Translations under genes and position numbers: made by a program
In this document: positions 21,620-63,359 of the stretch, one piece after another
Layout: each line of letters starts with the position of its first letter
How positions within the stretch are numbered: the first letter of the stretch is position 1
The notes under the pieces: generated by a model
Databases searched by the model: none
What the model was told of the DNA's origin: nothing
What the model saw: only the letters and a program-made list of their open reading frames with translations
Assembly: GCF_016904885.1 (NCBI RefSeq)
Contig: NZ_JADWYI010000001.1
Location: 7,869,224-7,933,223, forward strand
Reading direction: 5' to 3'
Length of the DNA stretch: 64,000 nt
DNA from: Archangium primigenium
Lineage (GTDB): Bacteria; Myxococcota; Myxococcia; Myxococcales; Myxococcaceae

Positions 21620-23671
21620 TCACCAGTCCTCCAGAAGCGCGTCGCGCTGCTCGCGAGTTCCGGTGAACGACGAGTCGGCCGCCTTCCGCAGCGACTTCAG
21701 GTATGGTCGCGTGCCCCGATCGTCGTAGAGGACTGCCGCGACCTTCCTAATCGCTGGGCGGCTGTGAACGATCGTGAAGACCGTCTCCAACGAAGCGTTC
21801 CGCCTCTCAAGCAGGCGAGCAAGAGCCGCCGCGAGTCGTTCACACCGATCCCAGTCCCGATACCAGGACACCGACGGGGCTTGCTCCCGTAGCCAGTCCC
21901 ACTCCTCGTATTCGAGGCGCGAGCTGGCAGCAGCATCGTACGTGGGCTGGAAGCACACCGCGAAAAGCGGCGACTTCACGTCGGCTTCCCAGAAAGCCAG
22001 CGTCAGACCGAACGCCGCGACGCGAGGCACGATCGAGCCAGCGCTGGAGGTTCCACTCTTCCACACCGCTGCGAGCCGCGACTGCGTGGCCCTCGGACTC
22101 AAGAAGCGACTGCCAAGCTCGAGGTCCCTAAGCGACGGAGACGACAGACTTTCAAGCCACTCAAGCACCGTGCCTGGCTGTGCCGAGATCGCCGATTGCC
22201 AAGGATAGGAAAACTGGAGCTGACCGGACGCAAGAGCCGTGAGCGCGCGGATGATCGTGACCTTGCCGCCGAAGCGGGCGAGTGCGTCGACGGAGACGTC
22301 ACGCCCTGATGTGAAGATCGCGCTGATGACAGCACCACGCGCCTCCTCATCTAGATTCGCTCCGCCGAGCTGCGACAGCACGTCGATGGCGCGCGACCCA
22401 ACTCGTTTCCAGAGAATGGGCGATTGCGCGAGCACCGGGTTCGCGCCAACGATAGTCGACAAGAACGGCGCCTGCGCGTCTCCAAAGGTCTCGACGTCAT
22501 TGGGCACGAGCAGGAGGACCGCAAGACGTAGCACGCGCTCCCCTACTTCGGTCAACGCACTACCGAGGAGAGAGAGAACCAGCGCGACACCCTCGGTGCG
22601 CGACTCATCGAAGAGCCGTCGCGTCTGGACCTCAAGCATCGTGGCTATTGGAGCGAGGTCGTTGTCTCGATGCCCGCAGAGGCCTTGAAGCATCTCGCGC
22701 CGACCAGTCACGCCCGACTCAGTGTTGGCCCTGTCGAACACCATGCCGATGAGTCGACTGCGCGCGTCCGGATCGAGGTTCTTCGCGCCCAAAACGCTCG
22801 CGAGAGCGGACCGTGCCGAGGAGCCCTGTGCGTACCACTCGCCAAAGATCGGCGCGAGGCTCGACACGATGGCGCGCCCCGCATGCGCTCCGGCAGCCGC
22901 CTCAAGCCATGTGCGAAACGTTGGGTCGCCTCTCACGGCGCCATCGAGCACCAAATCCACCCAGCCCTCAGGCTTGCCGGGCGCGCGAAGGTCGAGGACG
23001 AGTGCTGCGCTGGCGCTCTTGCGGAACTGCGACGGCGGAATCGCCCTAGGGATGGCTTGGAGGTCAAGCAATGCGCCGGCGTTCGCACGCGGCATGAGCG
23101 CGCCCGTACAGAAGGAGAATCGCGTCTTCTCCGCAGGCAACAACTCCTCCCAAAGTCGAAGGAAGACTGCTTCGAGCTGGGCCGCAGTGTCGGCGACGAC
23201 GATTACCGGACGGGGCTGGCCCAGGACCGCGCCGATCAGCAACGCGGCGAGTCGCCTGTCCGCAAACCCATCCAGGCTTGCGCCACCGGACGTGACCTCG
23301 CCCACCTCGACAGGTTTCGAGACTGCGCTATCCACTCCCTCAAGTTGGGGGCGTCTAAACGCCTCAAGCAAAGCCGTGGTCGGCACGCGCGCGACATGGT
23401 CGCGAGGAATGAGCAGCGAATGGGTCCACACGCAGCCAGGGCGCTGCATCTCCGGCGCGTACCAAGTTTTCGCGAGAACGAAGAGGTCCGTCCCGGGTAG
23501 TGGATAAGCTGTCAGGTACTCGTCGAATCCGAGCTGCATCGACGGGCCGGACATGTCGCTCAAAACGAGCATCGTCCGTAAAGCTTCCGGGGGCAGCGGC
23601 GTCGAACTGCTCAGCAGGCGATGCCCATCGCGGTAGCCGTGTATTGCCTGGTGGATGCTCGCAGGAGCCAT
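21620..23671 (-). CDS. GAP1-type GTPase-associated protein
   Basis: A 683-residue protein, last gene of the minus-strand GTPase operon. The N-terminus has the diagnostic GAP1-N pattern IHQAIHGYRDGHRLLSSS, followed by LVLSDMSGP and WTHSLLI. From memory these define the GTPase-associated protein 1 family predicted in bacterial NTP-dependent conflict systems. The remaining ~450 residues are helical and repeat-like (LEAAAGAHAGRAIV, VLRLAVLLLVPND, LASGQLQFSYPWQ), consistent with the middle and C-terminal GAP1 regions. There is no signal peptide or membrane helix. Its biochemical role is not established; by context it may sense or regulate the two GTPases, whose genes end 3 bp upstream. G+C is visibly lower than in flanking core genes. 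Confidence 0.75.
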   Translation of the reverse strand: MAPASIHQAIHGYRDGHRLLSSSTPLPPEALRTMLVLSDMSGPSMQLGFDEYLTAYPLPGTDLFVLAKTWYAPEMQRPGCVWTHSLLIPRDHVARVPTTALLEAFRRPQLEGVDSAVSKPVEVGEVTSGGASLDGFADRRLAALLIGAVLGQPRPVIVVADTAAQLEAVFLRLWEELLPAEKTRFSFCTGALMPRANAGALLDLQAIPRAIPPSQFRKSASAALVLDLRAPGKPEGWVDLVLDGAVRGDPTFRTWLEAAAGAHAGRAIVSSLAPIFGEWYAQGSSARSALASVLGAKNLDPDARSRLIGMVFDRANTESGVTGRREMLQGLCGHRDNDLAPIATMLEVQTRRLFDESRTEGVALVLSLLGSALTEVGERVLRLAVLLLVPNDVETFGDAQAPFLSTIVGANPVLAQSPILWKRVGSRAIDVLSQLGGANLDEEARGAVISAIFTSGRDVSVDALARFGGKVTIIRALTALASGQLQFSYPWQSAISAQPGTVLEWLESLSSPSLRDLELGSRFLSPRATQSRLAAVWKSGTSSAGSIVPRVAAFGLTLAFWEADVKSPLFAVCFQPTYDAAASSRLEYEEWDWLREQAPSVSWYRDWDRCERLAAALARLLERRNASLETVFTIVHSRPAIRKVAAVLYDDRGTRPYLKSLRKAADSSFTGTREQRDALLEDW

Positions 23672-23674
23672 GCG

Positions 23675-24532
23675 CTACCCGCCCCCCAAGAGCCACGCGA
23701 TCGGCTTAGTAATATCCTGACTGGTTTCCTGGTCATGGCGAACCTTGATGCGTTTCAACGCGTCGTCGAGTTCGAGGAGCGTCTGCTTCTCCGCTTCGTC
23801 GGTGATGTCGCCACCTTGCGCGCTCACCCCAAAGACATTGTGATCGAGCAGGTCGTCGTTGGCCGCCAAGAACTGCTGAAGCAACGGAATCTCCCGATTG
23901 ATGAAGCCATGCGGCGACATTCCAAGGCTCTCGACGAGGTCCCACGCGGACACCACCACGGCGATGCGTAGCTTTCTCTGCGCCCGTTCGAGGAGGAACT
24001 GGAGGAGTTCCACGAGTCTCACTTGGTGCGGGAGCATGTCAGGCGACCAAGTGTTCGGCACGGTGTTTGCTGACGTGGCCTGTGCCGTCTGGCTTCCAGG
24101 TAGCATCGCCTCAAGTTGCTGGGCTACCGCGAGCTGCGTGCCCTTCTGGACGTCCGGGTGGAGGAACAACATCACCCCGGTCGCATTTTGCACTAACGTG
24201 TCATGGTGGCGGCTCATCCTCCGATCCGTCAGTTGCTGCTTGAATGCCTCTCCGGCTAAGTCCGGGATCGAGAGGTCGACCGCGCCGACGCCCTCACCGT
24301 CAAGATGAAGAACGACGACCTGCTCGGTCTGCAGGTTCGTGCGCGGAACCTGCGAGCACTCACGCCACTCCTTCGTGATCTGATTGAGATAGGTCCGGTC
24401 GCCGCTCAGCTTCGTCAGCTTGAGCGCCGTCGCGCTGCTTCGGTCGGAGAGCACGTGCCACAGAGCTGCCACGAAAGTGGTCTTCCCCGAACCAGGCAGA
24501 CCGATGAAGAGGAGGTTCGCCCGGTTGCTCAC
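23675..24532 (-). CDS. P-loop GTPase of conflict operon (double-GTPase 1-like)
   Basis: A 285-residue P-loop NTPase. Walker A is GLPGSGKTTF at 11-20. The switch II region reads LSIPDLAGEAFKQQ, with the DxxGE form of a TRAFAC-like GTPase. VVVSAWDLVESLG supplies the base-recognition strand, in place of a clean NKxD. No transmembrane segment is present. Start ATG at 24532 overlaps the stop codon of the preceding GTPase gene by 4 nt (ATGA), implying translational coupling. It resembles the first member of the paired double-GTPase modules found with GAP1 and GASH proteins (recall of the families, not a search). GTP rather than ATP specificity is inferred. Confidence 0.75.
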   Translation of the reverse strand: MSNRANLLFIGLPGSGKTTFVAALWHVLSDRSSATALKLTKLSGDRTYLNQITKEWRECSQVPRTNLQTEQVVVLHLDGEGVGAVDLSIPDLAGEAFKQQLTDRRMSRHHDTLVQNATGVMLFLHPDVQKGTQLAVAQQLEAMLPGSQTAQATSANTVPNTWSPDMLPHQVRLVELLQFLLERAQRKLRIAVVVSAWDLVESLGMSPHGFINREIPLLQQFLAANDDLLDHNVFGVSAQGGDITDEAEKQTLLELDDALKRIKVRHDQETSQDITKPIAWLLGGG

Positions 24533-25482
24533 GGGTCCCTCCCGGTCCGCTCGAAGTACCGCCAGCCGAACTTACTGAACTCCCGCTCGTCACGTGACGG
24601 AGCTGGGGCTTCCTGGTGATCATCACGCGAAGCGGACGCCACGATGGTCGTCCACGAAACGAACGCTTCTGCGAGGCTACCATCTGAGTTCTCCTGCATC
24701 GATGAATACGCAGGACGCGCCGCGATCTTCCTGAAGGTGAGGTGCGGGACGCGAGCGCGAAACCTTCCCTCGAACTTATCCTGCGTCTTGGCGAGAAACT
24801 CCAGCGCCGATTGTCCCCCAGAAATGATGCGATCGAGCTTGGAGAAGACGACCTCGACGTGGCAGCGCGCACTCACCATGCCAGTGTCGAGCATGCTCTC
24901 TAGGATGTCCGCAGCGTCAGCATGTGCGCTCGTTCGCTGCGCCGCGCTCGCAAGGCGCTCGCCGTCGACGAGCACGACGACAGTGTCCGCCCGACGAAGG
25001 AACGTGAGTCGCTCAGCGTCCTCTTGTGAGTCCTTTGCCATACGGAACAGCTCACCCGACATCGCAGCGAGGAGGACGTCGCGGCGGGCTGTCGACAGCT
25101 CCGTACCGCGCAGGGCAAGGTGATAATACTTCGTTTCGTCGGTCAGCCACGTTCGCTGCGTATCCGGCTGGAACCCACCCGATGCGAGTCGGTTCAGGTG
25201 GCAGATTTCCTCGAAGCCGAGGAGCGACCTCGACCCAGCGAATCTGAAGCCAGCGAACGGTCCCTGATTCAGCCGCTCGTACAGCGAAGCGAGTACCGTC
25301 GTCTTGCCGCTCCCTTCGGCGCCCGCGAAGACCACGAGGTGCGTTCGCGATCGCAGCGTGATGACCTCGGCGTCGGACGATCCAAGCGCGGCGCCGGAGA
25401 AGAGCTCGATGAACTCGGGCTCTGCTTCTTCGACAGGCGCGGCGGCTTCGACCTCTGCATTTGTGGCGCCAGTGTTGGCCAT
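24529..25482 (-). CDS. P-loop GTPase of conflict operon (double-GTPase 2-like)
   Basis: A 317-residue P-loop NTPase distinct from its neighbour. A ~45-residue acidic, Ala-rich leader precedes Walker A, AGAEGSGKTT at 53-62. RTWLTDETKYYHLAL and RRDVLLAAMSGELFR occupy the switch region, and RADTVVVLVDGERLA and VEVVFSKLDRI provide later GTPase strands; SKLD is the NKxD equivalent. Its C-terminus is hydrophilic. The start lies 1 bp past the GASH stop codon, and its own stop overlaps the next GTPase start. Pairing of two dissimilar GTPases in one operon is the hallmark of these predicted conflict systems. Confidence 0.72.
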   Translation of the reverse strand: MANTGATNAEVEAAAPVEEAEPEFIELFSGAALGSSDAEVITLRSRTHLVVFAGAEGSGKTTVLASLYERLNQGPFAGFRFAGSRSLLGFEEICHLNRLASGGFQPDTQRTWLTDETKYYHLALRGTELSTARRDVLLAAMSGELFRMAKDSQEDAERLTFLRRADTVVVLVDGERLASAAQRTSAHADAADILESMLDTGMVSARCHVEVVFSKLDRIISGGQSALEFLAKTQDKFEGRFRARVPHLTFRKIAARPAYSSMQENSDGSLAEAFVSWTTIVASASRDDHQEAPAPSRDEREFSKFGWRYFERTGRDP

Positions 25483-25483
25483 G

Positions 25484-26572
25484 TCACTCCTCCGTATCTG
25501 CGTCGGACAGCGTCCGCAGCAGGATCGCCTCGACGTATGCTTGGCGCGCCACGCGAGCAGCCGTTAGTTGGATAGACGACTTCATCCCGCTGGAGGAGTC
25601 AAAGTACTGCTGCCAGCTCGTCGGTGCGCTCTTTGACCGGATGGAGGTGGCGAGCGTGAGCGGCATCAAGTCGAGCTTGCCCTCATCAAACTTCATCGTC
25701 CGCTCCCGAGCCCACTCCTCAGGAAGAGCGTTGACGAATTCGGCGAGAGCAATCTCCTGTCCCTTCGATTCCGAGGCTACGCGCGTAAGTAGCGCCGCCG
25801 CGTTGCTCGGGCCCAACGCGACATCAGTGAGATCCGCAAGCTCAGTTCCTGCGATGATTGAGGCGGCCTCTTTGAGCGACCTCCACGATTTGTTGATATC
25901 CCGACTGCAGCCACCCTCGACCCACCACAAGATGTTCGTTTCCTCGTCGGCGCAGCGCAGGTTGTGCATAGCAGCTTCAAGCTCGCTTTCAGCCCCTCGA
26001 ACGGCGTAAAGCAACGCTTGAAAGACAGGTGTGACCGCGGTCCTGAGCTGGAGCCAGTCATTGGCAGCAGTCACCCGTTCCATCGCTGTGGCGGCAGTAT
26101 CGGCGCTCCCGCTGATGGCGCTCGGATCGAAGGGCTTTCGCTTTCGCAGTTCGATGGCGATTTCGTGGACTCCCGCGAGGACCTCGCGCGAGATTTCGTC
26201 GAGGCGAGGCTCTGTAGCCCGCAGGCTTGATGCCTCTACTGCTGCGCCTGCGAGCACTGCGGTGCGCAGTATTTCGCCTCCCTCGGGGGCGGATTGAACG
26301 CAGGCGACGAGCGAAGCGCCAGCAAGGACCTGCAGTTCGAGGTTGTTGCGCTGTGGGAACGCGGGGTCCTGCTTCTGAAAGACTGCTAAGAAGGCATCTC
26401 TCGACGTCTTGGACGGGAGACCCTGGAAGATGCGGACCGTCTCTAGGAGGTTCTGGTCGCTACTGCGAAGTGCAGTCGCCCACGCCTCCACCCCGGCCCA
26501 GCGCTTCGCGAGCTTCGCTCCGTCGGGCTCAAGGGCCACCAGCCGATACCATTCACCAAAGTTCTTGTGCAT
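25484..26572 (-). CDS. GASH-type helical protein (GTPase-associated system)
   Basis: A 362-residue, all-helical cytoplasmic protein beginning MHKNFGEWYRLVALEPDGAKLAKRW, which I recognise as the N-terminus of the GTPase-associated system helical (GASH) domain. It is otherwise a run of amphipathic helices (LRSSDQNLLETVRIF, QVLAGASLVACVQS, AVRGAESELEAAMHN) with no catalytic motif. It is thought to be a scaffold or partner for the paired GTPases. It starts 17 bp after the stop of the phosphoesterase-adaptor gene and ends 1 bp before the next GTPase start. The name rests on recalled family similarity. Confidence 0.68.
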   Translation of the reverse strand: MHKNFGEWYRLVALEPDGAKLAKRWAGVEAWATALRSSDQNLLETVRIFQGLPSKTSRDAFLAVFQKQDPAFPQRNNLELQVLAGASLVACVQSAPEGGEILRTAVLAGAAVEASSLRATEPRLDEISREVLAGVHEIAIELRKRKPFDPSAISGSADTAATAMERVTAANDWLQLRTAVTPVFQALLYAVRGAESELEAAMHNLRCADEETNILWWVEGGCSRDINKSWRSLKEAASIIAGTELADLTDVALGPSNAAALLTRVASESKGQEIALAEFVNALPEEWARERTMKFDEGKLDLMPLTLATSIRSKSAPTSWQQYFDSSSGMKSSIQLTAARVARQAYVEAILLRTLSDADTEE

Positions 26573-26926: not shown

Positions 26927-27454
26927 ATGGCGCTGCTGAAGGTGACGGAGCAAGAGCGTCGGCGGCTATGGGAGATAGCCCGGGCCGCTGACGCTGGGTG
27001 GAGAGAGCGCGAGCGCGTGGACATGGTGCTGCTGGCCGATGAGGGCTGGAGTGCACCGCGCATCGCTCGGCACCTGGGCCGGTGCGCGGCCACGGTGCGC
27101 CGGGTGTTGCGCTCCTTCGTCCAAGACGGCCCAGAAGCCCTCTTCGCGCGTCTGGCGGGCAGGAAGCCCGACAGGGCGCACCGCCAGCGGGTGGAAGCCT
27201 CGCTGCATGCGTTGTTGTCCCAGCCTCGCTCGTGGACAGCCGGGCAGTTGGCCAGCGCACTCGAGGGCGAGGGTCTTCACCTGGGGCCGCGGCAGGTGCG
27301 TCGCTATCTCGGGAGCATGGGCGCGGGCTGGCGGCGCACGCGGCTGACGCTCACGCACAAACAGGACGCCCAGGCCGTCGCCCAGGCACGCCAGGCGCTC
27401 TTCCGGCTCAAAAAAAGCCCGCGCTCAGAGGATAAATCTCTACTTCCTGGATGA
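26927..27454 (+). CDS. IS630 transposase, N-terminal reading frame
   Basis: A 175-codon frame encoding the DNA-binding half of the transposase. A helix-turn-helix (MVLLADEGWSAPRIARHLGR, then CAATVRRVLRSF) recognises the terminal repeats, and a second winged-helix region follows (SWTAGQLASALEGEG, GPRQVRRYLG). It ends shortly after an A7 tract at 27410-27416. A +1 change of frame there (or loss of one A during transcription) leads into the catalytic frame. Confidence 0.85.
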   Translation: MALLKVTEQERRRLWEIARAADAGWRERERVDMVLLADEGWSAPRIARHLGRCAATVRRVLRSFVQDGPEALFARLAGRKPDRAHRQRVEASLHALLSQPRSWTAGQLASALEGEGLHLGPRQVRRYLGSMGAGWRRTRLTLTHKQDAQAVAQARQALFRLKKSPRSEDKSLLPG

Positions 27455-27941
27455 GTGCGGGTTTTCGCCCACCCAAGCCGTGGGCTACAGCTGGGCAGAA
27501 GTCGGCAGCCGTCGAGACGTCCCCTACGAGGCGCCTCGGCGCCGACGTGTCAATGCGCTCGTCGCCTACTGCCCGACAGGCCGTCGACGCGGTTTACGCT
27601 TCCGACGCTGGGCACGCACCATCACCGCGCGAGATACCCTGGACTTTCTCTTGTCGCTCGCCGACCCGGGCGGGGTCCCCACCTGGGTGGTGCTCGACAA
27701 TGGGAACATCCACCGCTGCCGCCTGGTATGCCGCGCCCTGCCGCGCTTGCGACGGCTGGGCGTCCATCTCTTCTACCTGCCGGCCTATTCTCCTGAACTC
27801 AACGACGTGGAAGCTGTCTTCGGCGTCATCAAGGCTCAGGAGCTTCCCGAACGCAGCTACCGCACTCTCGATGCTCTGCTCACCGCGGTGCAGCAGGCCC
27901 TGCGCCGCTACCACCATCGGCTGCGGCGCAGGTGTACATAA
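27411..27941 (+). CDS. IS630 transposase, C-terminal DDE reading frame
   Basis: Catalytic half of the IS630 transposase, open from the A7 tract. It begins with INLYFLDECGFS, where the Asp is the first catalytic residue; TWVVLDNGNIH holds the second and LPAYSPELNDVEAVFGVIK the third acidic residue. An independent start at 27480 would omit the first Asp, so activity requires fusion with the upstream frame. No stops or deletions interrupt it, so the element may still be mobile. Confidence 0.82.
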   Translation, partial: KKARAQRINLYFLDECGFSPTQAVGYSWAEVGSRRDVPYEAPRRRRVNALVAYCPTGRRRGLRFRRWARTITARDTLDFLLSLADPGGVPTWVVLDNGNIHRCRLVCRALPRLRRLGVHLFYLPAYSPELNDVEAVFGVIKAQELPERSYRTLDALLTAVQQALRRYHHRLRRRCT

Positions 27942-28993
27942 TTCATGTCCGGGGGCTTAGCGGCCCCTGTCATCATCGGAGCATCGACGGCGGGCGGCGC
28001 CTTGCGTGCTGGTCGGGGACAGTCCTGCCAGACGTAGTTGTGGTATGGCTGGTTGGTGTTTCTATCCTGGTCAGCGAGGAAGTGGTGGTCGACCTTGTGC
28101 CATCGCCGCTGGAACAGCCGAACACCGAGTCGTTGGTCATCGAGCCGCGAGATTTCGATGACGTTGTACATCGGATCCCAGCTGTCATCGTCTCGCTCAG
28201 GATGCATCGCCCCTGCGGTGACCCGGAGCGTCTTGTTAATCTCCTGCACGCGCTGCGAGTGCTTGTGCCCGAAGAGTTGCATTCGGACTTTCGACTCGAG
28301 GTGGCTGACCACCGTGTCCTGGTCCTGGAGCCACTCAGGTGGGTGATGGCAGAGCGTCAGGTACTCGACCCCGTCGCTGCGGTGGACGTTCACCTGGGCT
28401 TGGCCGAGAACGATGTTGTTCTTCGCGTCGTGCTGATTCGAGACGAGAGCGCTGCAGAGGCCTCGCAGTCTGATGACGGTCCCGCACGGCAGCGTGAGGT
28501 CTCGCTCCCAGTAAGGCTTTGCCGCTGAGATCGAGCACTGAAAGCGCGCCGCGAAAGTGTTGTAATCAGCGAGCGGAGCAAGGAGGGCCTTCGCCGAGTT
28601 CTCGTCGCTGAGGATCTCGCGGAGCTCCTTGTCGAGCCCAGGCCCCCGCTTGGCGCGAATGCTCTCGTGCAGAGTCTTCGTGACCTTGCTGTTCGCGATC
28701 TTGCGGTCGACGTCGTGGTTTCCGGGCACGACCCACACGCTCTCGTCGGGACACCTGATGGCGCGGCAGAACTCGCGGAGCCAGGATGCGGCACGATCGT
28801 ATTCAGCGCGCTGACCGGAGAACGCGATGTCGCCCGTCACAAAGACGCCGGTCGCTCCTCCAAGTTCCTGCGTGAGCGCGGCGGCATCGCGGAGAAGCTC
28901 ATGCCGCACGCCGTGGTCCAGGTCGTGGATGGACATTCCCGACGTGCCGGTGAAGTGGATGTCCGAGAGATGTACGAGGACGAGCTTCTCCAT
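27908..28993 (-). CDS. Calcineurin-like metallophosphoesterase, truncated by IS630
   Basis: The N-terminal 345 or so residues are a metal-dependent phosphoesterase with every active-site motif: SDIHF (Asp11, His13), TGDIAFSG, PGNHDVD, LCHHPPEW and FGHKHSQ. Substrates could be nucleotides, cyclic nucleotides, nucleic acid or phosphoprotein. After MMTGA the frame enters the IS and ends 17 codons later (AKPPDMN ... SRWW), giving a 361-residue product without its natural C-terminal adaptor domain. ATG 28993 (MEKLVLVHLSDIHF) is preferred; the frame is open further upstream, but those residues belong to the BrxL-like fragment. It is the first gene of the GTPase conflict operon and the likely effector or signalling enzyme (inference). 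Confidence 0.82.
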   Translation of the reverse strand: MEKLVLVHLSDIHFTGTSGMSIHDLDHGVRHELLRDAAALTQELGGATGVFVTGDIAFSGQRAEYDRAASWLREFCRAIRCPDESVWVVPGNHDVDRKIANSKVTKTLHESIRAKRGPGLDKELREILSDENSAKALLAPLADYNTFAARFQCSISAAKPYWERDLTLPCGTVIRLRGLCSALVSNQHDAKNNIVLGQAQVNVHRSDGVEYLTLCHHPPEWLQDQDTVVSHLESKVRMQLFGHKHSQRVQEINKTLRVTAGAMHPERDDDSWDPMYNVIEISRLDDQRLGVRLFQRRWHKVDHHFLADQDRNTNQPYHNYVWQDCPRPARKAPPAVDAPMMTGAAKPPDMNYVHLRRSRWW

Positions 28994-28996
28994 AAG

Positions 28997-29364
28997 GTCA
29001 GCCCCCAGGGCCTTCATCGCGGCGGTCTTCGCGTCGCCGAAGAAAATCGGGACGACATGATCCACGATGTCGGCGCTGACGTCGAGGAAGTTCCGCTTGT
29101 CTCGACGCGGGAAGAACGAGCTTCGCGCCGTTTCTTCTTCGCCACCTGCAGGGGAGCGGCGAGCGAGCGAGCGGGCTTGATGTTTCCCTGAACGCTGAGG
29201 TCGCCGAGGATGAGGAGAGCGGGGCTGACAGGCACATTTCGCAGCGCCGAGTAGGCGGCGACGAAGAAGGCGACGCCGAACTCGGCCTCGACGTCGCGCG
29301 CGAAGCCCAGCCCGGACTTCTGGATATGCAGGAAGCTGAAGGCGCGCTGGACGGGCTCCTTCAT
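28997..29364 (-). pseudogene. C-terminal fragment of a BrxL/Lon-related protease, frameshifted
   Basis: The first part reads MKEPVQRAFSFLH ... NVPVSPALLILGDLSVQGNIKPARSL, the C-terminal Lon-like proteolytic domain of the BrxL-type Lon-related protein of BREX and related systems. The match then moves through all three minus-strand frames: LQVAKK in the first, NGAKLVLPAS in the second, then DKRNFLDVSADIVDHVVPIFFGDAKTAAMKALG in the third, indicating at least two frameshifts. A full BrxL is about 680 residues; the N-terminal AAA+ part is missing here. The third frame runs straight into the phosphoesterase reading frame. It is probably a decayed relic of a larger defence locus. Confidence 0.7.
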
Positions 29365-51069: not shown

Positions 51070-51720
51070 ATGAGAAAGCCCCTCATGAGCACGCTTTCCC
51101 TCAAGTACGTGGCCCTGGGTGACTCCTCCGGTGTGGGTGTGGGGGGTCGTCCGGGCGGCTATGTGGAGTATCTCTTCCAGCGGCTGCGCCGGACGCGGGA
51201 CGGCGTGGGGCTGCTCAACCTCGCCGTGAGCGGCGCCACCAGCGCCACCGTGCTGTCCGGCCAGTTGGCGCGGGCCCAGCGCACCTCGCCCCAGGTGGTG
51301 ACGCTCGGGGTGGGCATCAACGACCTGTGGCGCGGCGTGACGCCCGGCGAGTTCGAGTCCAACATGGACCGGCTGGCCAGCGGACTCGTCTCCACGGGGG
51401 CCCGGGTGGTGGTGTCCAACCTGCCCGACATGTCCCTGGCGCCCGTGGCCCGGCTCGCGGCCCACTTCCTGCCCCTGCCCCTCATCGTGGAGCGCATCGG
51501 CGCCTTCAACGCGGCGCTCGAGCGCGTCATCACCCGCCACGGGCTGCTGGGGGTGGACCTGTACGCCCCCAGCCACGTGGAGCTCCCCGCCGGGAACTTC
51601 TTCTCCGCCGATGGCTTCCACCCCTCGGACGCGGGCTACCAGCGCATGGCGGAGCACTTCTGGCCGGTGCTGCAGCGGGCCTGCGAGGCCGCCCCCGAGC
51701 GGCCCCGCGCCACCGGCTAG
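51070..51720 (+). CDS. SGNH/GDSL-family hydrolase
   Basis: A 216-residue serine hydrolase (esterase/lipase type) with all SGNH blocks: GDSSGVG (nucleophile Ser, about residue 18-24), the Gly of NLAVSGAT, LGVGINDLW with the oxyanion Asn, and the C-terminal DGFHPSDAG carrying the Asp-x-x-His pair. No signal peptide is seen, so it is cytoplasmic unless exported otherwise. The start could be 51070 or the Met five codons later. It is the last high-G+C gene before the second island. Confidence 0.85.
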   Translation: MRKPLMSTLSLKYVALGDSSGVGVGGRPGGYVEYLFQRLRRTRDGVGLLNLAVSGATSATVLSGQLARAQRTSPQVVTLGVGINDLWRGVTPGEFESNMDRLASGLVSTGARVVVSNLPDMSLAPVARLAAHFLPLPLIVERIGAFNAALERVITRHGLLGVDLYAPSHVELPAGNFFSADGFHPSDAGYQRMAEHFWPVLQRACEAAPERPRATG

Positions 51721-51752
51721 GGCTTCGCTTGAGCAAGGCGTGCCGCGCCATT

Positions 51753-51905
51753 GTGGCGAGTGAAGAATACCATCCTAGAAGAGGAAAACTGGAAGTGGCT
51801 CAGGCGGATGCACTGCGCACGGCCGATCTCCAGTTCCTCACATTCAGTGCCGAATGTCTTGAGGTGTACGCCGGACACATGAAGCGGGTAGCAGAATCAG
51901 GGTAA
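51753..51905 (+). CDS. Possible small protein upstream of the nuclease-helicase
   Basis: A 50-codon frame from GTG 51753 to TAA 51903-51905, reading EEYHPRRGKLEVAQADALRTADLQF ... CLEVYAGHMKRVAESG. It lies 11 bp before the nuclease-helicase GTG, and its composition resembles that gene. It has no clear ribosome-binding site, so it may be a relic or not translated. Confidence 0.3.
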   Translation: MASEEYHPRRGKLEVAQADALRTADLQFLTFSAECLEVYAGHMKRVAESG

Positions 51906-51916
51906 AATGCACCCTT

Positions 51917-54562
51917 GTGGCTGGTCCAACTCCCGCTCAACTACCGCACCCCAGGGCACTGGGCGTACCCAGATATGACGGCTCGCCATATGTGACGAGC
52001 CGTGATGGTCGGCTCATCACCACGCGTGTCCTTCTCGACGGAGATAATGAGGCTGACGTAGCATCGCTTCCTTCAGCAGTCGGCTCACGCCCGCGCGTCT
52101 ATTGTCCGTTCTGTGGCTCGCTCGGACAGTACCGGCTACCGCGCAAAAAACCGGAGATCATCATTCCGCACTTTGCGCATGCGGATGATGATGAGTGTGT
52201 CTCCGCAGCGCTAGAGAGCATCCTCCACCGGCGCGCTAAGCGATTCCTCTTTGATGGACTCCAGCGCCTGCGCCATCAGGACAGGCCTCTCTTGGGTTTG
52301 GTGAAGTGTCGGCGATGCAAAGAGCCTTACTCCAAAGAAATCCTGCATTCAGGCTCATGGGCGCAGGAATTGGAGGAAGTGCGGGATGCATCAACAGGGC
52401 GAAAGCCCGATGTTGCAGCACTCGACGAGAGAGGCGGTCTCGCCTTCTTCTTCGAAGTGCATGCGACCCATTTAGTGGATGAGGCGAAAACGCGCGACTA
52501 CAACGCGGGCTCGACGCCAGGCATCGAACTCGATGCCTCCACATTGGTGGGTGAGCACGGTGAATGTTTATGGTTCGGCGTGGAGCCCCTCCGTGAAGCA
52601 AGGGCAAGTTGGCATTCAGAACGTGAGCCGCGCAGCTTCAATGTATGCAATTCATGCCGTGTTGCTCCTGAAGGGCTATCCGCTTTAATTACCTTGATCC
52701 ATACGCTCTACCGCTCCAAACCCGAGAATGGATTGCAACTGCTACACACTGCAGGCGAGCACATGGGGCTCAAGGGCTCATGGACAGTTCAGGCTGGCGC
52801 TGAAGCATTGTCATGGCCAGTAGAGCAGCCAGAGTTGATTCGCGAGAAATGCGGCGATGCCACCGCTCGAGTCCTCGCCAATCGCACACAATGGCCCATG
52901 CCCACAGAAATCCTGACAACAGGCTTCAAACTCAGGGAGGAAAACCCCTGGAAGAAGGAACCGCTTCCCGTGGTGCTCGAGAACCCATACTCAGCCCTGT
53001 GTAATATGGCCTCGCGAAAGAACGTGGTCAAGCAGGAGGAACTTGGGTTCGCCGATCTCCTCGTCGAGGCACAAGAGCTCGTGCTGAGGTCTGAGCGTTA
53101 TAATGCATACGCGGGGCAAGCATTGGCGCGAAGCATACAAGATGGACATGCGGCTTACATCGCCGAAGATCTAGCAAAATTGGTTGCACGTGTCGTCCAT
53201 GCAGACGCGCGGGAGGTGCTCTCTTGTCTTCAAACCACTGCAAAAACAGGTGATTTTCTCGTCTCTGGGCAGTGGGAGCAGGAGAATGTGATCGCACTCA
53301 AGGCGGTGGCCGACATAGAAGCACGCGTAAGCGAAAGGATATGTGCGCGCCGCTTGCACAGCCCTCTCCCCCTAGGTGAACACCGATTGAAAGAATTAAC
53401 GGAGGATCAGCGCAAGGCTGTCGAAACAGCGCTCAACTACCGGTTCTCGATCATTACCGGTGGGCCGGGCACAGGCAAGACACATGTAGTCAAGAGCATC
53501 GTACTTGAATCTTGGGCTAGAAACAAAGGTGACCGGTGGTTCCTGGCTGCACCAACGAACAAAGCCCTTCAACGCCTCAGAATGATGACGAACACATACC
53601 CATCAAAAGCACGCACCGTTCACGCGTGGCTCCGAAAAAGCAAAGAGTTCGAGCACAATCCTCCGCATGGCCTCATTATAGATGAGTCGAGCTTCCTCGA
53701 TATAGAGCTAATGGATCAGGTGCTCGAACTGGCCAAGGACGTCAGGCGGCTTGTGCTGGTGGGGGATCCGGATCAATTACCGAGTATTGGCCATGGCGCA
53801 GTTCTCAAGGATCTACTCGCCAGTGGCGAAGTAAAATCCGTGAGGCTCTCAAAAGTTCATCGCGTCGAAAAAGGCCGGGACGCACTTATCGACGCATCGC
53901 ATTCCATTCTCCAAGGCAGACTGCCATCGCCCGGTGAAGGAGTAACACTCCTTACTCCCGAAAAAAATGTCCTCGACATGGCTTTCCGCGAATTCGCGCG
54001 CCTCATAGCCGAGGCGAACGGCAATCTTGGCGAGGTACAGGTCATCACGCCAAACAGAGAGACGGTGAAGGCGCTCAACGATCACATACAGACGCGTTTC
54101 AACGGGAGTAAACCTTTGCTGCCGTGCTCTCGCAACCTGCGACAAGGGGACCGCGTCGTCTGCAACACTACGGTACATGGCACGCGTCTCTTCAACGGCC
54201 TTCAAGGCGTTATCCAAAGCGGTTCTTCTGAGGGCCTGCTGTTGAAAATTGAGGGTGAGTCCGACCCGATATCAGTGGCACAGGCGCATGTGGACACACT
54301 CACTCCCGCGTATGCGATGACAGTGCACAAGGCCCAAGGTTCAGAATGGGCCCATGTGCTCATCGTCGCAGATCGTCCCAGTCGCATCTTTGATAGGAAT
54401 CTATTGTACACGGCGGCGACGCGTGCCCAGCGCAGTTTGACCCTGGTAGGGACACATGCATTGCTCGCGTTAGCCGCCAAGCGAGTACGACCGCGAGTTA
54501 CCCTCCTTGCAGACCTCGTTCGCAAGCGCCAGCGACAGACGGCTATTTCCGCAAAGAAGTAA
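51917..54562 (+). CDS. CoiA-like nuclease fused to RecD2-like SF1B helicase
   Basis: An 881-residue protein with two parts. Residues ~55-215 resemble a CoiA/restriction-endonuclease-fold nuclease: a zinc-like CPFCG and PHFAH pair, LESILHRRAKRFL, then KPDVAAL (Asp165) and FEVHATHLVDEAKTRDY (Glu180, His182), a PD-(D/E)xK-type variant with ExH. A Cys pair (CRRCKEPYS) lies between. A ~270-residue helical middle leads to a full SF1B helicase: Walker A GGPGTGKTH (515-523), DESSF (589-593), GDPDQLPSIGHG, LSKVHRV, YAMTVHKAQGSEW and YTAATRAQRS. The helicase resembles RecD2/Pif1 enzymes. A DNA-defence role is likely, but this fusion matches no named system I recall. G+C is clearly lower than in neighbours. 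The GTG start has only a weak ribosome-binding site. Confidence 0.8.
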   Translation: MAGPTPAQLPHPRALGVPRYDGSPYVTSRDGRLITTRVLLDGDNEADVASLPSAVGSRPRVYCPFCGSLGQYRLPRKKPEIIIPHFAHADDDECVSAALESILHRRAKRFLFDGLQRLRHQDRPLLGLVKCRRCKEPYSKEILHSGSWAQELEEVRDASTGRKPDVAALDERGGLAFFFEVHATHLVDEAKTRDYNAGSTPGIELDASTLVGEHGECLWFGVEPLREARASWHSEREPRSFNVCNSCRVAPEGLSALITLIHTLYRSKPENGLQLLHTAGEHMGLKGSWTVQAGAEALSWPVEQPELIREKCGDATARVLANRTQWPMPTEILTTGFKLREENPWKKEPLPVVLENPYSALCNMASRKNVVKQEELGFADLLVEAQELVLRSERYNAYAGQALARSIQDGHAAYIAEDLAKLVARVVHADAREVLSCLQTTAKTGDFLVSGQWEQENVIALKAVADIEARVSERICARRLHSPLPLGEHRLKELTEDQRKAVETALNYRFSIITGGPGTGKTHVVKSIVLESWARNKGDRWFLAAPTNKALQRLRMMTNTYPSKARTVHAWLRKSKEFEHNPPHGLIIDESSFLDIELMDQVLELAKDVRRLVLVGDPDQLPSIGHGAVLKDLLASGEVKSVRLSKVHRVEKGRDALIDASHSILQGRLPSPGEGVTLLTPEKNVLDMAFREFARLIAEANGNLGEVQVITPNRETVKALNDHIQTRFNGSKPLLPCSRNLRQGDRVVCNTTVHGTRLFNGLQGVIQSGSSEGLLLKIEGESDPISVAQAHVDTLTPAYAMTVHKAQGSEWAHVLIVADRPSRIFDRNLLYTAATRAQRSLTLVGTHALLALAAKRVRPRVTLLADLVRKRQRQTAISAKK

Positions 54563-54637
54563 ACTGCCCCGACTGCACGTGGCGACACAACGCTGTGACA
54601 CTGCTGCGGAGCCGATGACGCCGTCTCACAGCGGAGA

Positions 54638-55598
54638 TCACGTGGCTTGAGGCTGAAAGCCACAGGCTTTGAACCATTGGGCCGCATCCGAGGCAGAAAT
54701 GAGCAGCATGGCGTCCTCGACCGCCTGACGAAGTGCTGTGACGGTGCGCGCTTCTGCCGTCCGGAGCAATCCCTTGAGCTTGGACCATGCGAATTCAATG
54801 GGGTTGAGGTCGGGTGAATACGGAGGCAGGTAGAGCACCTGGCCTCCATGCTGCTCAATGAGGGCGATGGCTTCCTTTCGAAAGTGCGCCCCCGCTCTGT
54901 CCAACAAGACGATGTCTCCAGGCCGCAGCATCGTCAGGAGATAATGGCTGACGAAATGGAGGAAGACATCCCCAGTCGTGGCTCCCTCATTCATCATGAC
55001 GGTTTCCAGCCCATCGAGACTGAGCGCGCCAATCATGCTCAGCACGGTGCCTCGATTGCGAGGGACAGCTTGCGCCACGCGTTGTCCCGTCGGGGCCCAG
55101 GCTCGTTCGCGCATCATGTCGATGGTGCAGCCCGCCTCGTCGATGCTCAACACCTTGGGAGTCGGAAGCTCGGGTTGTCGTTGGTGAAAGGCCTCTCGTT
55201 GGGCTTGGACGTCGGGTCGTTCGCGTTCGGTCGGGTAGCGGACTTTTTTTGAGCGTGTAGCCCAATCGCGTCAGCGTCCGGCCGATGGTTGCCACGCTCA
55301 CTCGCACGCCTGTGCGCTCCGTCCACGCTCGCGCCATCTCGGCTCGGGTCCGGTCGGGTTGTTCATCGACCAGGCGACGAAAAGCGCTCAGCTCCCCATC
55401 GCCTATTAGGTGGGTTTGCCCACCCCCGTGCGGCCGCGGAGCAGGGCTTCCCGTCTCACGAGTGAGACGCATCCAGCGTTGGACCGTGGCCCTACCCACT
55501 CCGAAGCGACGTGCCAATTGCTTGGACGTCCCCTCTCCTTGCTGGAAGGCCTCAACCACCCGTTGCCTCAAGTCCATCGAGAGTGCTGTCGTTCCCAT
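54638..55598 (-). mobile_element. IS630-family element (transposase in two frames), ends not resolved
   Basis: A second IS630-type transposase, different from the one at 26894. The first frame (55598 downwards) has the helix-turn-helix STKQLARRFGVGRATVQRWMRL and the GYTLKK tail; the second (to 54638) has LSIDEAGCTIDMM, IVLLDRAGAHFRK and PPYSPDLNPIEFAWSKLKG, holding the DDE residues. They are linked by an A7 tract (minus strand, 55244-55250) with a +1 frame change, the same layout as the other IS630 element. I could not define the terminal repeats with confidence; the left end must lie close to the stop codon of the nuclease-helicase gene. Confidence 0.8.
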
Positions 55599-55600
55599 CG

Positions 55601-55889
55601 CTCCCGATCAACCCCTGGGCGCCTCAGCTCATTCGATTCCCGCTGTCAGTGCCTACCAAGGTCGCTAGTCCAGAGTGACAGCAAACCCAGTTATGCACTC
55701 CGAACAATAGCGACAATATTACGGACGCACCGAAGTGCCTAACGTCGGCTATTGGTGAGATGATGACTTGGCGATGTGCTGCTGCGCAGTACCGGCGAAG
55801 TACTCCGCACTAACTGACTCTCACTCCATCGCTCCCATTTTATCTTGCGACCAGCACACACGATTGGGTAGCGCATGCCGTAGTTCATC
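55601..55889. other. Intergenic stretch beside the IS630 element
   Basis: About 290 bp of mixed, lower-G+C sequence with no gene, repeat or RNA that I can support. It probably contains the right end of the IS630 element and the junction with the transposase remnant at 55890. Confidence 0.3.
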
Positions 55890-56000
55890 TGGGAGCATCG
55901 CGTTAACGCCACTCGCTACGACAAGCTGGCCGTCAATCACCTAGCCATGGTGCAGGTGGCGCTCCTCTTCAGCGACTTACGCCGCCTGCATCCGGCATAG
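55890..56000 (+). pseudogene. Transposase C-terminal remnant
   Basis: A 36-codon open stretch reading WEHRVNATRYDKLAVNHLAM ... DLRRLHPA, then TAG. The core TRYDKLAxNxLAM is the usual C-terminal end of IS5/IS4-superfamily transposases. Nothing of the rest of the gene remains. With the IS630 element it marks the right edge of the second island. Confidence 0.65.
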
Positions 56001-56007
56001 ACCGTGC

Positions 56008-57798
56008 CTAGGGCTCTTCCAGCTCGCGCACCCGGAAGTCGTCGAACCAGACCCCGGCGATGGGCGTGTACAGGCCCGCGAGGCCCTCGGACTTCAGCGC
56101 CGAGGAGCTCGTGTCCGTCACCATCAGGCGCACCTGGCCGTTGACCGAGGCGGCCAGCCGCACCGGCCCCGAGCCCCACGCCGCCAGGGTGAACAGGGCC
56201 CCCTCGCGCGCGGAGGACTGGCCGCTGGAGGCCTCGCCCAGCACCGTGTGGCTTCCGTCCTCGCGGTAGCGGCGGATTTGGATCCGACCCGAGGGCAGGT
56301 ACACGAGCGCGTAGGCGGCCTGGCCCTGGGCGCGCAGCACCACGCCCGCCTCGTCCACCGCGAAGGCCTGCAGCCACGCCTCCACCTGACAGTCGCGGCA
56401 GCGCGAGGGCGAGGCCAGGGCCTGGTTGCCCCGCGAGGTGTCCAGGTCACTCACCGCGCGCTTGCCGTTGGTCAGCCACAGGCCCCGCTGGGACCAGTCC
56501 GACCCCAGGCTCTTGGAGGAGCTCCGGGAGAAGCCGTCCCGGAAGAGCTCCGTGCCCGGCGAGGGCAGTTCCTCCGGGGGCGCGGAGGGGGGCGGCGGCG
56601 GGGGCTCGGAGCCACCGCCCCGGGCCTCCAGCTTCACGCGCACCATGTGGCCCCGGGAGTTGTCGTCCGGCGCCTCGCCGAAGAAGCAGGGCACCTCGGA
56701 CACGCCCGCGGGCAGCGTCTCGAGCGCGTTGGGGTAGCCCTTGTAGGTGCCCTTCGTGTCGAGCACCACCGGCGCGCTGAACTTCCCGTCGCGCAGCGTC
56801 CGGGCATGAATCTCATACCCGCCGATGGACTGGCGCATGACGTTGTAGAAGACATACAGCGTGTCGCCCACCCGGGTGACGGCCGACTGCATCGCCCAGT
56901 CCCGCGAGGACTCCAGGAGCGTGCGCGAGCCGAAGGTCGAGCCGTTGAAGTGGCGGTGGTACAGCCGCTCCGTCTCGTCCTTGTAGACCAGGTGCATGCC
57001 GCCCTTGCCGTCCGCCACCGCGCTGAGCGCCGCCCCGTGGTAGATGCCGTCGGAGAAGGCGTCCTTCACCGAGCCCCACGCCTCCACCGGCTCGTTGTCG
57101 TCGCGGATGCGCATGCGCGTGGGCTCGAACCCGTCGTGCATGGCGTAGACGAAGACGAGCTTGGAGCCCACGCTGAGCAGCCGTCCGCCGCCGCGGCGCT
57201 TCACCCGGCCCAGGTTCGCCTGACGCTCGAAGTTCGAGCCGCCATCCGTGGACACGGACAGCACCGCCGTGGAGCCCCCATCCGACTCCAGACGGAAGGC
57301 CTGCACCCACAGGCGGCCCTTGGAGTCGCGCGCGAGCAAGGCCCGGGTATAGGCCGTGGAGTCGTCGGCGTTGAAGATGCGCACGGCGGGCTCCGGCGCC
57401 CAATCGTGGGTGCCCGCGCGGTAGCGCCACCATTGGAAGTACACGTCGTGCCGCGACGAGGCCTTGAGGCTGGGCGCCTCCCAGGAGTAGACGAGCGCCA
57501 CGTCCTTGCCCACGGCGATGAGGTCCGCGCGGTCCGCGTGGCTCGCGTCCGGCTGGATGGGGGCGGCGTAGCGGAACGTGCGGCCCTCGTCATCCGAGCG
57601 GTAGAAGGACAGGCCGCGGCCATCCGCCCCTTCCTGCTGGATGGCCAGGAGCCACGTCGGTGCGTGGCCCCCTCCGGTATCGATCCGCACCGCGTGCCGC
57701 TGCGCCGGCAGCGTGAGCGCGTTGCCGACGCGCACTGGCATGACGGGTGTCGTGCTCGCGAGCACCGCCGCGATGACCGCCACAGAACTCCAGATCAT
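56008..57798 (-). CDS. Secreted sialidase-like beta-propeller protein
   Basis: A 596-residue exported protein. The signal peptide is IWSSVAVIAAVLASTTPVMP. The first ~400 residues contain Asp-box-like BNR repeats (FYRSDDEGRTFRYA, LSVSTDGGSNFERQ) within a propeller (WWRYRAGTHDWAPEPAVRIF, LVYKDETERLYHRHF). A Pro-rich linker leads to a C-terminal ~170-residue LamG/concanavalin-like domain (DGFSRSSSKSLGSDWSQRG, WFDDFRVRELEEP). The sialidase catalytic Arg triad is not demonstrated, so a glycan-binding protein is as likely as an enzyme. A GGAGGGGGA site precedes ATG 57798. Confidence 0.75.
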   Translation of the reverse strand: MIWSSVAVIAAVLASTTPVMPVRVGNALTLPAQRHAVRIDTGGGHAPTWLLAIQQEGADGRGLSFYRSDDEGRTFRYAAPIQPDASHADRADLIAVGKDVALVYSWEAPSLKASSRHDVYFQWWRYRAGTHDWAPEPAVRIFNADDSTAYTRALLARDSKGRLWVQAFRLESDGGSTAVLSVSTDGGSNFERQANLGRVKRRGGGRLLSVGSKLVFVYAMHDGFEPTRMRIRDDNEPVEAWGSVKDAFSDGIYHGAALSAVADGKGGMHLVYKDETERLYHRHFNGSTFGSRTLLESSRDWAMQSAVTRVGDTLYVFYNVMRQSIGGYEIHARTLRDGKFSAPVVLDTKGTYKGYPNALETLPAGVSEVPCFFGEAPDDNSRGHMVRVKLEARGGGSEPPPPPPSAPPEELPSPGTELFRDGFSRSSSKSLGSDWSQRGLWLTNGKRAVSDLDTSRGNQALASPSRCRDCQVEAWLQAFAVDEAGVVLRAQGQAAYALVYLPSGRIQIRRYREDGSHTVLGEASSGQSSAREGALFTLAAWGSGPVRLAASVNGQVRLMVTDTSSSALKSEGLAGLYTPIAGVWFDDFRVRELEEP

Positions 57799-57921
57799 TC
57801 CCTGGTCCCCCTCCGTTGAACTGGAGGACAAACTAGGCACGGGCCCTCGCGAAAAAAGCATCCCGGGCGGGGGCCCACCGAGGGCAGATTTCTTCCCTGC
57901 CCGGGATACCGCGGTGCCGTC

Positions 57922-63219
<5,298 letters not shown>

Positions 63220-63359
63220 AGACCGGCGGTGTTTAACGGCACACGTCGGGCCCGCCAACGGAATCCGTGACGTGGGGTGACGCCTGCCCGCTCGTCCTGC
63301 GCGCACCCGGGAGTCGCTACCATGGACTCCCCCTCTTCCACCCCAGGAGAGACCCCCCC

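What the first reader, a model, noticed from the sequence alone, without database searches (positions are those of the whole stretch)
51917..54562. Fusion of a CoiA-like nuclease domain to a RecD2-like helicase in a low-G+C island
The N-terminal zinc-like cysteines, Glu-x-x-x-His and Asp...Glu-x-His pattern resemble CoiA/PD-(D/E)xK nucleases, while the C-terminal half has a complete SF1B motif set. Nuclease-helicase fusions are typical of anti-phage enzymes. The gene is isolated, of foreign composition and bordered by transposase remains. I do not recall a named system with this architecture.
Basis: partly seen in the sequence, partly recalled or inferred. Interest (0 to 1): 0.75.

Follow-up and report, generated by a model that had tools for sequence, protein, structure and literature searches.

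The report
CoiA-type nuclease fused to RecD2-like helicase
A foreign-looking bacterial gene encodes one protein that joins a DNA-cutting domain of the CoiA family to a DNA-unwinding motor related to RecD2, a combination we did not find elsewhere; it most likely destroys invading DNA, but that function is untested.

Summary
Window 51917-54562(+) is one intact 881-codon gene. Residues about 60-206 are a CoiA-family PD-(D/E)XK nuclease domain: profile match to Pfam-certified CoiA proteins (probability 99.1; window alone 94.5; helicase control 0.1), kept catalytic-type residues, and a modest-confidence model whose best second-look matches are restriction-endonuclease-like (Z 8.5-8.7; Foldseek alone not significant). 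Residues 491-869 are a complete RecD2-type SF1B helicase. It fails RecD2 family cut-offs; CoiA stands where the OB domain would be. The fusion was found only here: 48 of 1,378 genome searches held a CoiA-like domain, and the helicase was joined to it only in the window gene. The gene is foreign in composition and absent from this place in 5 of 5 relatives read. The neighbouring transposase is a full-length, multi-copy IS, not remains. Stand-alone CoiA relatives lie near Gabija (2) and an Argonaute-associated REase (1) among 18 neighbourhoods, partly scanned; PADLOC hits to this protein itself are generic. Best reading: a one-gene nuclease-helicase acting on foreign DNA, analogous to Nhi. Defence is inferred, not shown.

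The parts
51718..56020 (.). Approximate extent of the lineage-specific low-G+C segment
   Evidence: DNA alignment to relatives stops at about 51687-51718 and resumes at about 56020 (2 genomes of another genus) or 57916-57921 (3 same-genus genomes); G+C 0.54-0.61 against 0.69-0.74 on either side
51917..54562 (+). CoiA-like nuclease / RecD2-like helicase fusion gene, 881 aa
52103..52198 (+). Residues 63-94: CxxC ... HFAH ... C, zinc-ribbon-like CoiA_N motif
   Evidence: C63, C66, H88, C94 invariant in the 8 sequences of A1; weak CoiA_N match, relatives above cut-off
52214..52534 (+). Residues 100-206: PD-(D/E)XK nuclease core; E100, H104, K108, D165 (52409-52411), E180 (52454-52456), K191, E204
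   Evidence: All invariant in A1, found by similarity, and in A6, where E100, H104 and K108 were part of the search pattern; order of helices and strands and REase-like fold matches; CoiA profile match
52784..53116 (+). Residues about 290-400: diverged helical region equivalent to the RecD2 HhH region
   Evidence: alignment to most RecD2 proteins read begins at about residue 294-304; no HHH_RecD2 or HHH_5 Pfam match at E<=1
53387..54523 (+). Residues 491-869: SF1B helicase core, Walker A K521 (53477-53479), DE box D589-E590, VHKAQGSEW, YTAATRA
54625..55646 (-). Full-length IS630-type insertion sequence (HTH and DDE in two frames), starting 62 bp after the stop codon
   Evidence: 5 other full-length copies of 99-100% identity in own genome; DDE_3 and HTH matches
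51730..51905 (+). Short upstream ORF (TTG start) ending 11 nt before the fusion's GTG; status unknown
   Evidence: sequence; no significant Pfam match

Best explanation
The gene encodes a single-chain nuclease-helicase. The C-terminal SF1B motor (RecD2 type; 5'->3' translocation is established knowledge of that family, recalled) loads on single-stranded DNA or 5'-tailed ends. The N-terminal CoiA-type PD-(D/E)XK domain, placed where RecD2 has its OB domain, cuts the strand being unwound or displaced. Lying in a lineage-specific low-G+C segment of a genome without another RecD-like match, its most likely job is destruction of incoming or replicating foreign DNA (phage or plasmid): a one-gene defence enzyme acting like Nhi. 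Shown here: domain identities, kept motifs, foreign location, no other match to it in its genome. Inferred: enzymatic activity, polarity, coupling of cutting to unwinding, and the defence role.
For: CoiA membership by profile comparison (helicase control); D165, E180, K191 and E204 invariant in 12 of 12 sequences of A6 and 8 of 8 of A1; REase-like second-look matches 9y1l Z 8.7, 1wdj Z 8.6, 3ijm Z 8.5; RecD2 as best solved match by sequence (3e1s, E 4.5e-44) and fold (3gpl, E 5.9e-34, TMt 0.79); SF1B motifs present; gene foreign in G+C and absent at the site in 5 of 5 relatives read; no other match to it in its own genome at E<=0.001. Stand-alone CoiA relatives: both Gabija subunits at 2 and an Argonaute-associated REase at 1 of 18 neighbourhoods; among the 25 of 26 families shown for 99 control proteins there is no Gabija or Argonaute family. 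Plasmid relatives lie near TIR, RM, Abi and AAA+UvrD genes in part. A double-GTPase conflict-type cluster lies 25 kb away in the window.
Against: No second example of the fusion, so no evidence of selection on the joined protein. The main PADLOC matches to the helicase are generic. The only other genes seen in the segment are the IS and a short ORF, so no defence gene lies beside it. The neighbourhood controls were arbitrary stretches, not matched for mobile DNA; about half of the neighbour proteins were scanned and only 10 pinned to loci, so the association may only mean 'lives in mobile DNA'. Housekeeping genes are also frequent among the neighbours. The N-terminal model is of modest confidence (mean pLDDT 54.2, core 58-78 by block) and Foldseek gave no match below E 0.001. 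The tool notes that a best Z of 7-8 is typical even for models without a clear Foldseek match.
Confidence: 0.45

Rival explanations
1. A DNA-processing enzyme of a mobile element (plasmid, ICE or prophage) left in the chromosome: it serves the element's own replication, recombination or DNA transfer rather than host defence.
For: RecD-like helicases are common on plasmids (342 of 72,556 records match); stand-alone CoiA-like proteins occur on plasmids (1 record, 13) and viral contigs (13 of 18 pattern stretches), some near ParA/ParB, TraM-type or integrase genes; foreign composition.
Against: Besides the independently multi-copy IS, no other mobile-element gene is seen in the segment. Some stand-alone relatives sit beside complete defence pairs.
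Confidence: 0.3
2. A competence-type enzyme: like CoiA in Firmicutes it acts on incoming single-stranded DNA during natural transformation, with its own motor attached.
For: CoiA-family profile match; CoiA is listed among competence-induced recombination functions located with the DNA-uptake machinery (PMC3527212, passages seen).
Against: The gene is absent at this place from the relatives read. In the 9 plasmid neighbourhoods read, no other competence gene is annotated.
Confidence: 0.1
3. A dead or decaying chimera produced by recombination, with no selected function as a fusion.
For: Only one example among 1,378 genome searches.
Against: 881 codons open, with a coding G+C pattern by codon position in most of its length (weakest in residues 231-345); nuclease and helicase signature residues kept.
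Confidence: 0.1
4. The N-terminus keeps the REase fold as a DNA-binding or zinc domain without cleavage.
For: The canonical ExK lysine position is His182, variable among relatives; model confidence is modest.
Against: D165, E180 and a Lys on the next helix (K191) are invariant in 12 of 12 sequences of A6, as expected for an active PD-(D/E)XK variant with a migrated Lys (recalled).
Confidence: 0.1

Closest known systems
CoiA family (PF06054 CoiA_nuc, PF25164 CoiA_N)
   Same: CxxC...HFAH...C zinc-like motif, E..LH..AK helix, PD...E pair; hhalign probability 99.1 to five certified members
   Different: ExH instead of the ExQ of the certified members, a Lys at 191 that they lack, and a helicase C-terminal to the domain
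RecD2 / RecD-like helicase YrrC (TIGR01448)
   Same: Complete SF1B motor and a residual helical region; best solved match RecD2 3e1s/3gpl
   Different: 294 bits against a cut-off of 500; OB_YrrC, HHH_5 and HHH_RecD2 not detected, SH3_13 below cut-off; nuclease domain added
Nhi (nuclease-helicase immunity), single-gene anti-phage enzyme
   Same: One protein with nuclease and helicase; reviewed as DNA nicking and unwinding (PMC12904381, passages)
   Different: Only a weak helicase-region match to the PADLOC Nhi model (E 2.9e-6), exceeded by ordinary RecD2; the nuclease halves were not compared
Dna2, AddA and RecB type nuclease-helicases
   Same: PD-(D/E)XK nuclease plus SF1 motor (recalled; Dna2 5eax is rank 43 among the helicase fold matches)
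   Different: Different helicase subfamily; nuclease of the CoiA branch (recalled for Dna2, AddA and RecB)

Membership tests
CoiA family | Sequence-profile similarity to certified CoiA proteins | tested here: met
   Window alone vs 5 proteins that pass both CoiA cut-offs: probability 94.5, E 7.5e-8; with 11 relatives 99.1, 6.3e-19; helicase control 0.1
CoiA family | Direct Pfam match above gathering score | tested here: not met
   CoiA_N 16.9 bits against 26.3; CoiA_nuc not reported at E<=1. So: a CoiA-like branch, not a certified member
CoiA family | PD-(D/E)XK-type residues | tested here: met
   D165 and E180 align with invariant Asp and Glu of certified members (2 in A4; 5 in A10)
CoiA family | PD-(D/E)XK-type fold | tested here: inconclusive
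   Second-look matches Z 8.5-8.7 to REase-like proteins on a modest-confidence model; Foldseek not significant. Leans to met
CoiA family | Role in natural transformation | not testable with these tools
   Needs genetics in a competent host
RecD2 (TIGR01448) | Family score above curated cut-off | tested here: not met
   294 bits against 500
RecD2 (TIGR01448) | N-terminal OB and HhH domains | tested here: not met
   No OB_YrrC, HHH_5 or HHH_RecD2 match at E<=1; control RecD2 L353 shows all three
RecD2 (TIGR01448) | SF1B helicase motifs and fold | tested here: met
PADLOC PDC-S68 / type IV RecD / RecD_like | Specific similarity beyond the shared helicase | tested here: not met
   Best stretches start at residue 386 or later; two ordinary RecD2 proteins score higher on typeIV_RecD, RecD_like and the best PDC-S68 model; the N-terminus alone has no PADLOC match at E<=0.1
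Nhi | Nuclease-helicase single chain giving phage immunity | not testable with these tools
   Architecture analogous; immunity needs plaque assays

The most novel reading that the evidence does not exclude
A previously undescribed one-gene anti-invader enzyme in which a CoiA-type nuclease has replaced the OB domain of a RecD2 helicase; by extension, the wide CoiA-like family outside competent Firmicutes is a nuclease family recruited to defence and mobile-element conflict.
Probability: 0.3. Interest if true: 0.7.

Novelty: new variant of a known kind. Interest (0 to 1): 0.5.

Why it matters
CoiA's biochemical role in transformation is unclear to my knowledge (recalled). A natural fusion to a motor whose substrate and polarity are understood suggests that CoiA-type nucleases act on DNA being unwound, and gives a single-gene construct in which the activity can be tested. 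It would also add a nuclease branch to the single-chain nuclease-helicases, and it points to CoiA-like proteins near Gabija and Argonaute-type loci as candidates for defence screens.

Tried and rejected
PADLOC as evidence of defence for this protein: rejected. Two ordinary RecD2 controls (L087, L002) score higher on typeIV_RecD, the best PDC-S68 model and RecD_like. On MkoA the window scores somewhat higher (46.6 bits against 31.0 and 22.1), but over residues 490-555 only.

CoiA_nuc (PF06054) as a genome probe: 1 of 195 phylum genomes, too narrow; replaced by profile A1. Of the 19 of 195 genomes matched by the single N-terminal sequence at E<=0.01, the weakest (G097, G154) look like chance, as does a second own-genome match (L123).

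Long frames holding a CoiA-like domain in L344 (1,118 aa) and L219 (1,030 aa): read-through of high-G+C sequence by eye, no helicase.

A combined 28-sequence alignment (A5) was not used: identities of the N-terminal rows fell to 9-16%, so I judged it misaligned and predicted two separate models. Foldseek had no match below E 0.001; the REase reading of the fold rests on VIA-align's second look and on the profile match.

No RNA family at gathering threshold in 51600-56100. Phage collection: no match to the N-terminus at E<=0.01. Viral scans with the N-terminus or L105 as single queries found no relative; A3 found one (L250).

Paper searches for the architecture: CoiA+RecD+helicase+defense gave 0; 'competence protein CoiA'+phage+defense gave 0; CoiA+nuclease+helicase gave 17, none on this by title and abstract start; RecD2+phage defense+nuclease+helicase gave 1, unrelated by listing; 'CoiA-like' occurs in none of the 10 papers listed. 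Most subscription papers are not held.

Full report
What is there. Window 51917-54562 on the + strand is one open frame of 881 codons without internal stops, within an 899-codon stop-to-stop frame. Its G+C is 0.56 against 0.69 for the window; its third-position G+C, 0.585, is lower than in 37 of the 38 other frames predicted in the window. Along the gene G+C is 0.587, 0.545, 0.535 and 0.566, so the fusion was probably acquired as a unit (inference). The assembly is 9.49 Mb in 3 contigs. I take it for a myxobacterium from size, G+C and gene content; no call states this.

The C-terminal half. Pfam finds AAA_30, AAA_19 and UvrD_C_2 above cut-off. NCBIfam's RecD2 model scores 294 bits against a cut-off of 500. 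The SF1B motifs are present: Walker A K521, D589-E590, GDPDQLP, VHKAQGSEW and YTAATRA (motif names recalled). The solved proteins most similar in sequence are RecD2 (3e1s, E 4.5e-44) and RecD of RecBCD. A model of residues 214-881 (mean pLDDT 76.8; block means 66-93 over the helicase core) matches RecD2 best (3gpl, E 5.9e-34, TM-score by target 0.79). A control plasmid RecD2 (L353) shows OB_YrrC, HHH_5, HHH_RecD2 and SH3_13 above cut-off. In the window protein the first three are not reported at E<=1 and SH3_13 has 14.4 bits against 41. Of four plasmid RecD2 proteins compared, three align from residue 294-304 and one from 206. So the CoiA domain stands in place of the OB domain and the HhH region is diverged.

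The N-terminal half. By itself the window sequence gives only a sub-threshold CoiA_N match. Residues 1-345 matched in 19 of 195 phylum genomes at E<=0.01, the window's own among them and the weakest probably chance. Alignment A1 of eight proteins has, among others, invariant C63, C66, H88, C94, E100, H104, K108, E153, D165, E180, K191 and E204, and 3 of the 7 relatives scanned pass Pfam's CoiA_N cut-off. Five other proteins pass both CoiA cut-offs and form profile A10. Against it the window N-terminus alone scores probability 94.5, the window with 11 viral-contig relatives 99.1, and the helicase profile 0.1. In the viral-contig alignment A6 the invariance of HFAH, E100, L103, H104, A107 and K108 is by construction, as they were in the search pattern; D165, E180, K191 and E204 were not. 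The model of residues 1-298 is modest (mean pLDDT 54.2; blocks 58-78 over residues 101-210) with helix 102-120, strands, D165 at the head of strand 166-169, E180 in strand 175-182, helix 189-197 carrying K191, and strand 202-206: the order expected of a PD-(D/E)XK core (recalled). Foldseek gave no match below E 0.001. VIA-align's second look ranks 9y1l (Z 8.7, 113 aligned, 3.2 A), 1wdj (8.6, 111, 2.8 A), 3ijm (8.5, 109, 4.5 A) and 3ot2 (7.4), then the DrdV nuclease, Hjc and, lower, SPARDA and RecU. The tool warns that Z below 8 is common; the recurrence of one fold class in the list, with the profile match, is what persuades me. CoiA is named in Pfam's PD-(D/E)XK clan in PMC1913061 (passage seen). 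The window has ExH where the five certified proteins have ExQ; that position varies among the relatives.

How rare the fusion is. Profile A1 was run on 193, 8, 398, 246, 276 and 257 genomes: 21, 0, 18, 3, 2 and 4 matched, 48 of 1,378, the window's own included. Four genomes are counted twice, and in the large searches only the top 7-14 candidates of a genome were scored, so misses are possible. All 54 matching places were fetched and all show a CoiA-like frame (two, L224 and L346, are cut by contig ends). Over all 356 loci held, 114 frames are CoiA-positive, repeats included, and the helicase is joined in four, all copies of the window gene. Of 72,556 plasmids, 342 have a match to the whole protein at E<=1e-20, but none covers 80% of it. 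Thirteen of the 18 viral-contig stretches found by motif patterns encode a CoiA-like frame (226-572 codons), none with the helicase. The genome contigs and viral scans with the whole protein, which use six short peptides, gave 79 and 80 loci, none with a CoiA-like frame.

Where it sits. Three of 3 same-genus genomes align up to about window 51687-51710 and again from about 57916-57921; 2 of 2 genomes fetched from another genus align to 51687-51718 and again from about 56020. Between those points they hold other genes of host-like G+C (0.68-0.72), so the site is variable rather than cleanly empty. None of these five genomes matches the protein at E<=1e-30, and the window genome has no other match at E<=0.001. 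The IS630-type element starts 62 bp after the stop codon, is about 1,022 bp long, and has 5 other full-length copies of 99-100% identity.

Does it do defence? For this protein PADLOC gives PDC-S68 and type IV RecD matches, but two ordinary RecD2 proteins score higher, so these are uninformative. For stand-alone CoiA-like relatives, 18 neighbourhoods were fetched, one of them from the window's own genome, with 14 control stretches at arbitrary places in 14 of the same 18 genomes. Scanning 99 of 197 predicted neighbour proteins (some CoiA-like genes among them) and 99 of 171 control proteins at E<=1e-15 gave 246 against 26 PADLOC families. The first number is inflated by near-duplicate Gabija and kinase models (one kinase alone hits 26). 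The control hits look to me like housekeeping paralogues (RtcR, cysteine desulfurase, helicases), though SspA, DndA and DpdF models are among them. Ten proteins were pinned to loci: L325 and L328 each carry both GajA and GajB, L321 an Argonaute-associated REase, L322 a generic helicase hit; four others had none at E<=1e-30. Housekeeping genes are common among the neighbours too. Nine of the 14 plasmid records with a match were read: L124 has a TIR gene, L305 SNF2, methyltransferase and DEAD genes, L306 a type ISP RM enzyme and Abi, L307 AAA+UvrD and Abi, L308 a methyltransferase and Fic; L304 and L309 have toxin-antitoxin-type pairs, L304 also ParA/ParB; L310 and L311 have integrases, L311 a UvrD gene. 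This is suggestive, not a demonstration.

Mechanism. From the anatomy I expect 5'->3' translocation by the motor (known for RecD2, recalled) and cleavage by the CoiA domain of the strand it feeds or displaces. [quoted passage not shown] The defence role is the most likely single explanation but below even odds; a mobile element's own DNA-processing enzyme is the main rival.

Noticed in passing
window 21623-26572 (-): Four-gene GAP1-N1 / DO-GTPase1 / DO-GTPase2 / GASH cluster, a GTPase-associated conflict-type system, third-position G+C 0.71-0.78; a likely describing paper is PMC7159879 (search listing only)..
   Followed up: partly
window 26927-27451 (+) and 27911-29065 (-): Transposase-like HTH frame and a calcineurin-like phosphoesterase with a PDC-S60 match (E 1.8e-14) beside the GTPase cluster.
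   Followed up: no
window 57925-63306 (-): 1,794-aa UvrA-like protein with repeated ABC and UvrA interaction matches, about double length.
   Followed up: no
G000:C1:6531769-6532386 (L228): The same genome encodes a second, stand-alone CoiA-like protein (384-codon frame).
   Followed up: partly
L325:6910-16001 and L328:1827-10000: Stand-alone CoiA-like genes within a few kb of GajA+GajB (Gabija) pairs.
   Followed up: partly
L321:7548-11644: CoiA-like gene followed, one frame later, by a Class I Argonaute-associated REase (Aga, E 5.9e-170).
   Followed up: partly
L276-L293 (IMG/VR contigs): CoiA-like proteins, both certified CoiA (L279, L285) and the K191-type branch, are encoded on predicted viral contigs.
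   Followed up: partly
L231 (stand-alone CoiA-like, 632 aa): Weak PADLOC match of its zinc-like N-terminus to DruB1 of Druantia (E 0.0025); DruB may contain a CoiA-like N-terminus.
   Followed up: no
window 51730-51905 (+): Short ORF in the foreign segment ending 11 nt before the fusion's start codon; could be a leader or a remnant.
   Followed up: no
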